NCBI GenBank assembly: GCA_025093555.1
Contig: JAIWNF010000003.1
Location: forward strand, 930,001 to 994,000
DNA from: Circinella umbellata
Taxonomy: Eukaryota; Mucoromycota; Mucoromycetes; Mucorales; Lichtheimiaceae
DNA: 64,000 nucleotides
Reading direction: 5' to 3'
The notes under the pieces were generated by a model. It did no database searches, was not told where the DNA came from, and saw only the letters and a list, made by a program, of their open reading frames with translations. Shown here one piece after another: positions 10,188-13,519 of the stretch. How positions within the stretch are numbered: the stretch's first letter is position 1; the number at the start of each line of letters is the position of its first letter. Made by a program: the position numbers and the translations under genes.

Positions 10188-10929
10188 GTTTGTGAAAGGT
10201 GAAAAAAAAGGTAAAAATCGCCCGCTGCGCGTCCTTTTCTCTTTTTTTTTTTTTTGCTGAATGAAATTTTCGTGTTCGCGTTGGATTAATTCTAACAACG
10301 CGTGTGACGAGTATTATGCTAAATATTTAACTAAATCAATGGTTTGTTTCTATATCTTTCTAGCTAATAACAATATATTTGTAAGATTATGACATATAAA
10401 GAGTAAGGATATAGTGGATTGAAAATTGTTATGTAAAGATATTATCAAATATAAAATGATACAGAACTATCATACTGTAATGCTTTTTTTACATGTATCT
10501 GCTTTACGTGTTAATTAATAAAGTTTATCAATATAATAGGGGCTTTTTTTCTTACTAATTTTAAGTGAATATATACTTATTTAGTAAAATATAAAAAGAA
10601 TAATCATTATGTTTACTATGATACGATTTTTTATTCCTATTATACTGTAATGTAATATATTCTGCGTACGCCATATCACCATCTGTCCGTCCTAACGATA
10701 TTTGGAATGTGCTATGATATAGATTGAGAGTATTTAGCTGTACAAGTTATATGATGTGTAATTACATTTGATGTCGCCAGATAAAGAAAATGACTCATGT
10801 ATTACAAAAATTTTGTTGCATCATCTGTCTATAAATTCGATTCAAGAAGCCGACAATCCTTTACTTTTGTTTTTTTTAATTCGCCTTTGTTTATTTCTTT
10901 TTTATAAAAAAAAAATTCAACCACACACA
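10188..10929. promoter_or_regulatory. Divergent promoter region POL3 / ornithine acetyltransferase
   Basis: This 742-base region separates two divergent genes. The polymerase side has CG-containing motifs (10227-10303); the other side has T-rich and A-rich tracts at 10865-10920 just before the ATG. No gene is seen. An upstream in-frame ATG at 10768 extends the second gene, but the extension is AT-rich and unlike the family. Confidence 0.5.
10298..10303. promoter_or_regulatory. MCB-like box (ACGCGT) upstream of POL3
   Basis: An ACGCGT palindrome sits about 110 bases upstream of the polymerase start codon. A second GCGCGT lies at 10227-10232, about 40 bases upstream. In yeasts, MluI cell-cycle boxes bind MBF and drive G1/S transcription of DNA replication genes. 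In a region this AT-rich two such CG-rich hexamers beside a replication gene are suggestive. The regulatory role is inferred. Confidence 0.45.
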
Positions 10930-12351
10930 ATGTTATCCATTTTCCGATCTAGTATGAATGGCGTTCGTAACCAAACCCAACAACGATTTTCGTCCACTTA
11001 TTCTCACTTGACAACTTCCAAACAAGCACTCATTCCCACTTCTGGTGTTTATCCTGCAGGTTTCCGAGCTAGTGGTGTTTATTGTGGTGTCAAAAAGAAT
11101 GGTAACAAGGACATTGCACTTATTATTTCAGATCGCCCATGTTCTGGTGCTGCTGTCTTTACTACCAATGCATTCAAGGCTGCTCCTGTTCTTGTAAGTC
11201 AGGCCACCCTTGCAGATAACAGTAACGCGTTATTCGGTGTTGTAACTAACTCAGGCTGTGCCAATGCCGTAACAGGTCAACAAGGTCTTGAAAATGCCAA
11301 ACGTATGCGTAACACAGTCGATGAATTAGTGAATCACAAGAACAGTGCATTGACAATGTCCACTGGTGTTATTGGTCAACAACTTCCTATTGAAAAAATT
11401 GAAGCTGGTATTCGCGACGCTTATACAAAACTTTCGGACCAACACGCGGATGGTTGGATGAAATGTGCCGAAGCTTTTATGACAACAGATACTTTCCCCA
11501 AATTGCGTACTGGTCAATTTGAATTGAATGGCAAGAAAGTTACTATGGCAGGTGTTTCCAAGGGTGCTGGTATGATCCATCCTAATATGGCTACTCTCCT
11601 TGGTTTCATGGTTACCGATGCTCAAGTTGAACCTTCCTTGTTACAAAAGGCTCTCAAGTATGCTACTGATAGAAGCTTTAACTCGATTAGTATTGATGGT
11701 GATATGAGTACCAATGACACCATTGCTGTTTTGGCCAATGGTGCCAGTGGTGCCAAGATTGACAGTGAAGGACCAGCATATGAAATATTCCGTGATCAGC
11801 TTACTGCTTTTGCTATTGACCTTGCTCAACTTGTTGTTCGTGATGGTGAAGGTGCTACCAAATTTGTTACTATTCACATTAAAGTAAGTAAAGTTAATAA
11901 TAAGGGGTAAAGCAGGGGTAAGAAAATGGATGGGTGAGGGCCATACTAACTCAAAAAACCAAAACGAAAAAAAAAATTACAGGGTGCCAAAACATTTGAG
12001 GATGCAAAGCAAGCTGCTTCTCATATCTCCACTTCGATGCTCACCAAGACAGCATTGTATGGACAGGATGCCAATTGGGGACGTATTTGCGCAAGTTTAG
12101 GACATAGTGGAATCCCTGTTGATGCCAGCAAAGTTAGTGTAAGCTTTGTCCCAGTAAACGGATCTGAGCCTCTCAAGCTTATGATTACTGGTGAACCTGA
12201 AGTTGTGGATGAAGCTCGTGCTTCCGAAATTCTTAAAGATGAAGATCTCATTATTGAAGTCGACCTTAACCTTGGTGAAAGTGAAACCAAATTCTGGACT
12301 TGTGATCTTAGTCATGAATATGTTACCATCAATGGTGATTATCGCTCATAA
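10930..12351 (+). CDS. ARG7: Mitochondrial glutamate N-acetyltransferase / ornithine acetyltransferase
   Basis: Two exons (10930-11883, 11983-12351) encode 440 residues of the ArgJ family. The enzyme moves the acetyl group from N-acetylornithine to glutamate and can also make N-acetylglutamate from acetyl-CoA, closing the cyclic arginine pathway in mitochondria. The first 25 or so residues ([20 protein letters not shown]) form an amphipathic, basic presequence. The body has [47 protein letters not shown] and the autocleavage site [16 protein letters not shown]. Thr222 in MATLLGF is the expected new N-terminal nucleophile of the beta chain. [11 protein letters not shown] and GRDANWG-like GQDANWGRI follow. 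All hallmarks are intact and the length is normal. The ATG at 10930 was chosen over 10768 because the presequence begins there. Confidence 0.95.
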
Positions 12352-12924: not shown

Positions 12925-13519
12925 ATGTCTGCTGTAGCACCTGTCAACATTCGTCGAGCCGATCCTAACACACCTCTTCCTGCTGAATATTCAACTACTC
13001 CCCACGGAACGATTTATGGCTCAACTCCTGGAGGTACAGATTAAAAAATGAAATTCGTTTCATTTTCTTTTTGTTTCTTTTTTTTTATATATATTGTTTC
13101 CACATTACATATACATTATATGAGACACGTTTTGGTGAACAATAAAAGATAGGTACTCGTGTTATCTATGATCGATCGACGTTACTTGCCTTGTCCAATA
13201 GTCAACTGGCAAAAACTCCACCTACAAAAATGATGTATGTAGCTGGTGTTACTAAGGCAGGCGGTAACCAAGAGAACGGTAACAGCTCGCTTCATCCAAG
13301 TTCTGCAAATACTCCTCTTCGACGAGCTGCTGATGTTAAACGTGAAGAAGAAGAAAAGAAAAAGACCTGTAAGTTTTGGACCTATATAAAATTAAGAGAG
13401 AAGAGAGAAATAAAAGTATGGGATATAACCTCTTTAATGTTTCATATAATATTATTTAAATAGATAATCCTTATGCTGTTCTTAACAGTGAAGATGGCAT
13501 GTTTGACATGGAGGACTAA
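12925..13519 (+). CDS. eIF4E-binding protein (4E-BP), metazoan type
   Basis: Three exons (12925-13033, 13153-13368, 13464-13519) give 126 residues, close to the 118 of human 4E-BP1. The alignment to animal 4E-BP runs through the core: EYSTTPHGT and GSTPGGT match the two N-terminal priming Thr-Pro sites (here Thr25 and Thr34). TRVIYDRSTLLAL contains the eIF4E-binding motif Y-x4-L-phi at Tyr42-Leu48. LAKTPPTKMMYVAGVT matches the third Thr-Pro site and the following PGVT segment. The last five residues are FDMED, close to the TOS motif FEMDI that recruits TORC1 through Raptor. The protein should bind eIF4E, block eIF4G and repress cap-dependent translation until TOR phosphorylates it (family knowledge). 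A Glu/Lys-rich stretch precedes the last intron. The small exons make it easy to miss in automated annotation. Confidence 0.88.

What the first reader, a model, noticed from the sequence alone, without database searches (positions are those of the whole stretch)
12925..13519. Metazoan-type 4E-BP in a fungus, with TP sites, eIF4E motif and TOS-like tail
The spliced 126-residue protein matches animal 4E-BP across the core, not just the short eIF4E motif. Two N-terminal Thr-Pro sites (STTPHGT, GSTPGGT), YDRSTLL, the later KTPP...GVT segment and a C-terminal FDMED are all in the animal order. The known yeast eIF4E-binding proteins Caf20 and Eap1 are not related to this. A TOR-regulated 4E-BP in this lineage would mean the switch predates animals and was lost in yeasts. 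The gene is easy to miss because exons are short.
Basis: partly seen in the sequence, partly recalled or inferred. Interest (0 to 1): 0.82.

Follow-up and report, generated by a model that had tools for sequence, protein, structure and literature searches.

The report
Animal-type 4E-BP gene in a fungus
A bread-mould relative carries a true relative of the animal protein that brakes protein synthesis when nutrients run out, apparently inherited from before animals and fungi split, but with some of its regulatory signals altered in this mould order.

Summary
Exons 12925-13033, 13153-13368 and 13464-13519 (+) splice to a 126-residue protein matching Pfam eIF_4EBP (E 4.5e-24) and human 4E-BP1 (E 5.6e-15). 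The identical protein is already annotated in a public Circinella record, so it was not missed. Relatives were listed from Mucorales, Mortierellomycota, Glomeromycotina, Zoopagales, Entomophthorales, Basidiobolus and one chytrid. A tree splits 13 animal rows from 30 fungal or fungal-like rows with 100/99 support, which speaks against contamination and for common descent.

Among 11 Mucorales rows the eIF4E motif and the T46 and T70 sites remain in 11 and T37 in 10, but the RAIP arginine and Ser65-Pro are gone in 11, and in 10 intact tails the last TOS position is acidic (9) or Ala (1). A conserved [YF]NP[FY][AS][VL]L block precedes the tail.

TOR control is inferred. Loss in yeasts was not tested. 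My paper searches found no description of fungal 4E-BP; one older survey was not held.

The parts
12925..13033 (+). exon 1: residues 1-36 and the first base of codon 37, holding STT25P and ST34P (human T37, T46)
13034..13152 (+). intron 1, GT-AG, phase 1 inside the Gly codon of TPG-G-T
   Evidence: relatives P0005, P0018, P0022, P0025 break or begin at the same place, read by me as an exon end
13153..13368 (+). exon 2: eIF4E motif YDRSTLL (residues 42-48), NSQ (human S65 place), KT58PP (human T70), AGVT, and the charged run KREEEEKKKT (13338-13368)
13369..13463 (+). intron 2, GT-AG, phase 1 inside the Tyr109 codon
   Evidence: identical protein annotated independently
13464..13519 (+). exon 3: rest of the YNPYAVL block (to 13483) and TOS-like tail FDMED, stop TAA

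Best explanation
This is the Mucorales ortholog of animal 4E-BP: a small, probably disordered inhibitor that binds the back of eIF4E through YDRSTLL and keeps eIF4G off the cap. When nutrients are present, TORC1 would phosphorylate T25, T34 and T58 (human T37, T46, T70), helped by raptor docking on the C-terminal FDMED, and release eIF4E. Shown here: gene structure, homology, a tree that fits vertical descent, conservation of these sites, and matches to eIF4E, raptor, TOR (FRB) and tuberin in the same genome. Inferred: eIF4E binding, TORC1 phosphorylation, translational repression. My confidence is about 0.95 for orthology, 0.85 for eIF4E binding and 0.65 for TORC1 control; the figure given is for the whole statement.
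For: Pfam eIF_4EBP 85 bits; human 4E-BP1 alignment over residues 18-82. Tree of 53 rows: 40 fungal or fungal-like against 13 animal or animal-like, 100/100; 10 Mucorales one clade 100/100. Tree of 43 rows: 13 animals against 30 others, 100/99; 8 Mucorales one clade 100/99. In 78 rows that I picked by name out of 202 fetched (11 Mucorales, 39 other fungi, 28 animals), the eIF4E motif and the T46-P site stand in 78 of 78. The eIF4E locus on C46 reads, exon by exon, HPLHNAW, TVEDFW and LLAMIGEQF. One raptor match; its 638-residue piece matches human raptor with 819.6 bits. FRB E 6.7e-45, tuberin E 1.5e-42.
Against: In one search Mucorales lack R/K-x-IP (0 of 11) and Ser65-Pro (0 of 11, against 39 of 39 other fungi and 28 of 28 animals); TOS position 5 is acidic in 9 of 10 intact tails and Ala in 1; Cunninghamella echinulata (P0010) has Ala at the T37 place, so even that site is kept only in 10 of 11. 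These changes could weaken TORC1 docking or control. The raptor is not specially animal-like: it matches chain 6zpn_A (recalled as the ascomycete Chaetomium) with 764.2 bits and the plant-type chain 5wbi_A (recalled as Arabidopsis) with 695.7. The chytrid row does not fall at the base of the fungi but beside Dimargaris (83/79) on a long branch of 1.06, so its place is unsure. The hamartin search found nothing; the 14 control genomes gave no match in any of my six family searches, so they tell nothing. No expression, binding or phosphorylation data were available.
Confidence: 0.75

Rival explanations
1. Orthologous 4E-BP whose regulation has moved away from raptor docking in Mucorales: weakened TOS and RAIP leave the TP sites to other proline-directed kinases, and the [YF]NP[FY][AS][VL]L block takes over part of the docking or makes a second contact with eIF4E.
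For: Loss of the RAIP arginine, Ser65-Pro and the hydrophobic TOS position in Mucorales, a long Mucorales stem (1.17, 0.52), and a block conserved in 10 of 10 intact Mucorales tails.
Against: F, the hydrophobic third and the acidic fourth TOS positions are kept in 10 of 10 intact tails; the TOS of PRAS40 (FVMDE) also ends in an acid (PMC6325617, passages), and one animal row ends FSMDE (P0105). Raptor is well conserved.
Confidence: 0.2
2. Animal contamination or recent horizontal transfer from an animal.
For: The core is strikingly like animal 4E-BP.
Against: The gene sits inside a 1.35 Mb contig next to an ArgJ gene; nearest relatives are other Mucorales; fungi and animals separate with 100/99; broad fungal distribution.
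Confidence: 0.01
3. Convergent eIF4E-binding protein like Caf20 that shares only the YX4L-phi motif.
For: Such convergence is described for p20 (PMC7139794, passages).
Against: Similarity extends over both TP sites, KTPP, GVT and tail, with Pfam E 4.5e-24.
Confidence: 0.01

Closest known systems
Animal 4E-BP1/2 (EIF4EBP, Pfam PF05456)
   Same: YX4L-phi motif, T37/T46/T70 places with TP, GVT segment, C-terminal F-x-M-acid tail, same order
   Different: No RAIP arginine, no Ser65-Pro, TOS position 5 is Asp, first TPGGT is TPHGT, extra KREEEEKKKTYNPYAVL block
Other fungal PF05456 proteins (Mortierella, Rhizophagus, Syncephalis, Basidiobolus, Phlyctochytrium)
   Same: Same family and core; fungal side of the tree
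   Different: In 39 such rows: Ser65-Pro in 39, R/K-x-IP in 34, hydrophobic TOS position 5 in 37
Yeast Caf20/p20 and Eap1
   Same: eIF4E binding (PMC7139794, passages)
   Different: Described there as Saccharomycotina-only, and p20 as sharing only the short motif with 4E-BPs; not compared here

Membership tests
4E-BP family (PF05456) | Match to the family profile over the curated cut-off | tested here: met
   85 bits, cut-off 24
4E-BP family (PF05456) | YX4L-phi eIF4E motif | tested here: met
   YDRSTLL, residues 42-48
4E-BP family (PF05456) | Paired TP sites before the motif (human T37, T46) | tested here: met
   STT25PHGT, ST34PGGT aligned
4E-BP family (PF05456) | Common descent with animal 4E-BP | tested here: met
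   Profile match and trees; the root between fungi and animals was set by me, not inferred
4E-BP family (PF05456) | Binds eIF4E and blocks eIF4G | not testable with these tools
   needs a binding assay
Animal-type 4E-BP1/2 with full mTORC1 feature set | Ser65-Pro | tested here: not met
   NSQ in the window; 0 of 11 Mucorales
Animal-type 4E-BP1/2 with full mTORC1 feature set | Thr70-Pro | tested here: met
   KT58PP
Animal-type 4E-BP1/2 with full mTORC1 feature set | RAIP motif | tested here: not met
   window reads VAPV; R/K-x-IP in 0 of 11 Mucorales; 4 of 28 animal rows also lack R/K-x-IP, so it is not universal
Animal-type 4E-BP1/2 with full mTORC1 feature set | TOS F-x-phi-(E/D)-phi at the C-terminus | tested here: not met
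   FDMED: four of five positions fit the consensus given in PMC11348030 (passages); the last is acidic, as in PRAS40 FVMDE (PMC6325617, passages)
Animal-type 4E-BP1/2 with full mTORC1 feature set | Rapamycin-sensitive phosphorylation | not testable with these tools
   needs phosphoproteomics

The most novel reading that the evidence does not exclude
Mucorales have rebuilt 4E-BP: weakened raptor docking (no RAIP arginine, acidic or Ala TOS end), a lost Ser65-Pro switch, and a conserved [YF]NP[FY][AS][VL]L block that reads as a second, degenerate YX4L-phi motif, making a bidentate inhibitor. Basidiobolus shows FTPASLL at a like place, so such a block may be old or have arisen twice.
Probability: 0.15. 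Interest if true: 0.65.

Novelty: new variant of a known kind. Interest (0 to 1): 0.5.

Why it matters
A review treats yeast p20 as a convergent stand-in for metazoan 4E-BPs (PMC7139794, passages). Orthologs across zygomycete fungi and in a chytrid would put the protein in the ancestor of animals and fungi and offer fungi such as Phycomyces and Mortierella in which to ask whether TOR control of 4E-BP is equally old. The Mucorales changes are a natural experiment on which docking and phosphorylation features are needed.

Tried and rejected
Considered and rejected: animal contamination, horizontal transfer from an animal, and convergence (profile match, contig, trees).

Led nowhere or little: the hamartin search found nothing in the genome nor in the 14 controls, so it is uninformative. 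AlphaFold2 on the 17-row alignment A1 gave mean pLDDT 53.1 and pTM 0.27; two short strands (29-33, 39-43) fall where phosphorylated 4E-BP2 is known to fold (recalled), but the confidence is too low to use. The human eIF4E piece used as a query gave weak matches on C127, C1 and C90 and missed the canonical copy on C46, so it added nothing. The first tree display failed on overlapping groups and was repeated. The patterns for the eIF4E motif and Ser65 were faulty (a dash in every row) and were replaced. Dikarya, holozoan protists, Mucor and Rhizopus could not be checked: no fungal genome other than G000 was within reach of the tools, only the best 120 hits were shown, and one search scored only the candidates sharing most words.

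Rows left out of the counts: 124 of the 202 fetched proteins, namely unnamed metagenome proteins, fragments, intron-retaining copies, some named fungal rows and many named animal rows. P0014 was left out of the tail count because its annotated tail lacks the motif.

Full report
WHAT IS THERE. The window lies at 930001-994000 of contig C134 of a 50.8 Mb, 210-contig genome; C134 is 1,350,852 bases. A public record holds the same protein, 100% identical over its whole length, named as an eIF4E binding protein of an organism whose name, cut short in the listing, begins 'Circinel', on a contig of the same length. I take this as Circinella, in Mucorales, Lichtheimiaceae. So the gene model is independently confirmed and had not been missed. 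I did not see whether that annotation used RNA-seq.

WHAT FAMILY. Pfam gives one match, eIF_4EBP, 85 bits against a cut-off of 24. In the Protein Data Bank the best match is human 4E-BP1, E 5.6e-15, window residues 18-82 on human 30-94. The alignment has no gaps, so window T25, T34, S53 and T58 stand on human T37, T46, S65 and T70. The genome search with the family gave two matches, both exons of this gene.

HOW WIDESPREAD. The single-sequence search gave 28 hits among 50 candidates, all shown; the hits whose source named an organism were Mucorales genera and Basidiobolus. A profile search gave 1767 hits, of which 120 were shown: these add Mortierellomycota, Glomeromycotina, Entomophthorales and Zoopagales, mostly but not wholly ranked above the animals. 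A second profile gave 1256 hits, 120 shown, scored only for the candidates sharing most words; it adds a chytrid, Phlyctochytrium arcticum (lineage). Except for Circinella and Phlyctochytrium I assigned genera to groups from memory. Among the shown rows that name an organism I saw no Dikarya, Mucor, Rhizopus or Absidia; most hits were not shown, so this is a lead and no proof of absence.

DESCENT. A tree of 53 rows puts 40 fungal or fungal-like rows against 13 animal or animal-like ones, with support 100/100, and the 10 Mucorales as one clade, 100/100. A second tree of 43 rows with the chytrid puts 13 animal rows (one, labelled only 'scpid', I take as a sponge from memory of that label) against 30 others, 100/99; the window lies with Lichtheimia and Dichotomocladium (98/91). 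The root was placed between animals and fungi by me. Inner fungal forks are poorly resolved, and the chytrid falls beside Dimargaris (83/79) on a long branch instead of at the base. The pattern fits descent from the animal-fungal ancestor; it does not fit animal contamination.

WHAT CHANGED IN MUCORALES. I compared 78 named rows of the 202 fetched: 11 Mucorales, 39 other fungi, 28 animals. The eIF4E motif and the T46-P site stand in 78 of 78. T37-P stands in 10 of 11 Mucorales (P0010 has Ala) and T70-P in 11 of 11. Ser65-Pro: 0 of 11, 39 of 39, 28 of 28. R/K-x-IP (RAIP-like): 0 of 11, 34 of 39, 24 of 28; Phycomyces keeps TAIP without the arginine. Hydrophobic fifth position of the TOS-like tail: 0 of 10 (nine acidic, one Ala; P0014 left out), 37 of 39, 25 of 28. 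These are probably few events on one branch, not independent counts. The TOS consensus is F-x-phi-(E/D)-phi (PMC11348030, passages), and PRAS40 has the variant FVMDE (PMC6325617, passages), so an acidic end does not rule out docking; one animal row (P0105) ends FSMDE.

Before the tail, 10 of 10 intact Mucorales carry [YF]NP[FY][AS][VL]L after a run rich in Lys and Glu that ends KK[KQ]T, KKKT or RKKT; the seven columns of the block have on average 8.7 of 10 rows alike, against 3.9 for the linker 72-97. The strict block occurs in none of the other 192 fetched proteins except P0005, an unnamed copy that closely resembles the Rhizomucor row. In 182 other rows with a recognisable core, a second [YF]x4[LVIM][LMFIV] after the first motif occurs in 9: seven Basidiobolus rows (FTPASLL), P0014 (a Mucorales row with an odd annotated tail) and P0074 (a doubled domain). 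What the block does is unknown; a second eIF4E contact, a contact with the FRB domain of TOR, or extended raptor docking are guesses.

PARTNERS IN THE SAME GENOME. Eight eIF4E-family matches at four places, one of which (C46) reads as canonical with HPL, TVEDFW and LLAMIGEQF in its exons. One raptor, whose 638-residue piece matches human raptor with 819.6 bits, chain 6zpn_A (recalled as Chaetomium) with 764.2, chain 5wbi_A 'Regulatory-associated protein of TOR 1' (recalled as Arabidopsis) with 695.7 and Kog1 with 575.4. A TOR FRB domain and tuberin; hamartin was not found. The 14 control genomes gave no match in any of the six family searches, so they add nothing. A TORC1 able to act on a 4E-BP is thus likely encoded, but action on this protein is inference.

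LITERATURE. [quoted passage not shown] a term search of its main text found no '4E-BP', '4EBP' or 'eIF4E'. A 2010 survey of fungal TOR (PMC2997006, passages) has '4E-BP' twice, both times in references. A 2020 review (PMC7139794, passages) describes p20 and Eap1 as Saccharomycotina-only and p20/metazoan 4E-BPs as convergent. A 2012 review calls most 4E-BPs phylogenetically unrelated to each other (PMC3359775, passages). Passages of PMC3388326, PMC12467227, PMC5745459 and PMC8439657 did not mention a fungal 4E-BP ortholog. Ten library searches (the listings showed 30 of 35, 20 of 199 and 20 of 48 papers and every paper found in the others) listed no title or abstract that I could recognise as describing fungal 4E-BP orthologs. 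The library holds open-licence papers only; a 2011 survey of TOR pathway evolution that I recall was not held and may cover this. Supplementary files were not read.

VERDICT. A real 4E-BP ortholog, already annotated and shared with many early-diverging fungi. Its breadth and the Mucorales remodelling were not described in the papers I saw, and they make the age of TOR control of 4E-BP directly testable.

Noticed in passing
window 13338-13368 and 13464-13483; P0002-P0004, P0006-P0011: Conserved Mucorales block, a Lys/Glu-rich run followed by [YF]NP[FY][AS][VL]L, reading like a second degenerate eIF4E motif; Basidiobolus has FTPASLL at a like place.
   Followed up: partly
listings: No Mucor, Rhizopus or Absidia protein was seen among the shown rows that name an organism, although other Mucorales genera are there; possible loss or unannotated genes. 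Most hits were not shown.
   Followed up: no
P0050, P0072: Two proteins labelled as the plant Anthurium amnicola fall beside Rhizophagus (100/98) and Paraglomus (100/99) in the tree, so they look like fungal contamination of plant data.
   Followed up: partly
P0015-P0017, P0019, P0020, P0029, P0030: Basidiobolus has several 4E-BP paralogs, with R-x-IP motif, Ser65-Pro and FDMELE/FDMEME tails.
   Followed up: partly
P0010: Cunninghamella echinulata row has Ala at the place of Thr37 and Asp in the following turn (STAPNDT), while its second TP site is intact.
   Followed up: no
P0074: Unnamed animal-like protein with two 4E-BP cores in tandem and a very long branch (3.63).
   Followed up: no
window 10924-11910 (+): ArgJ-family gene upstream; ordinary.
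   Followed up: partly
G000:C127, C46, C1, C90: Four eIF4E-like loci in this genome; only the C46 copy was read as a canonical form.
   Followed up: partly
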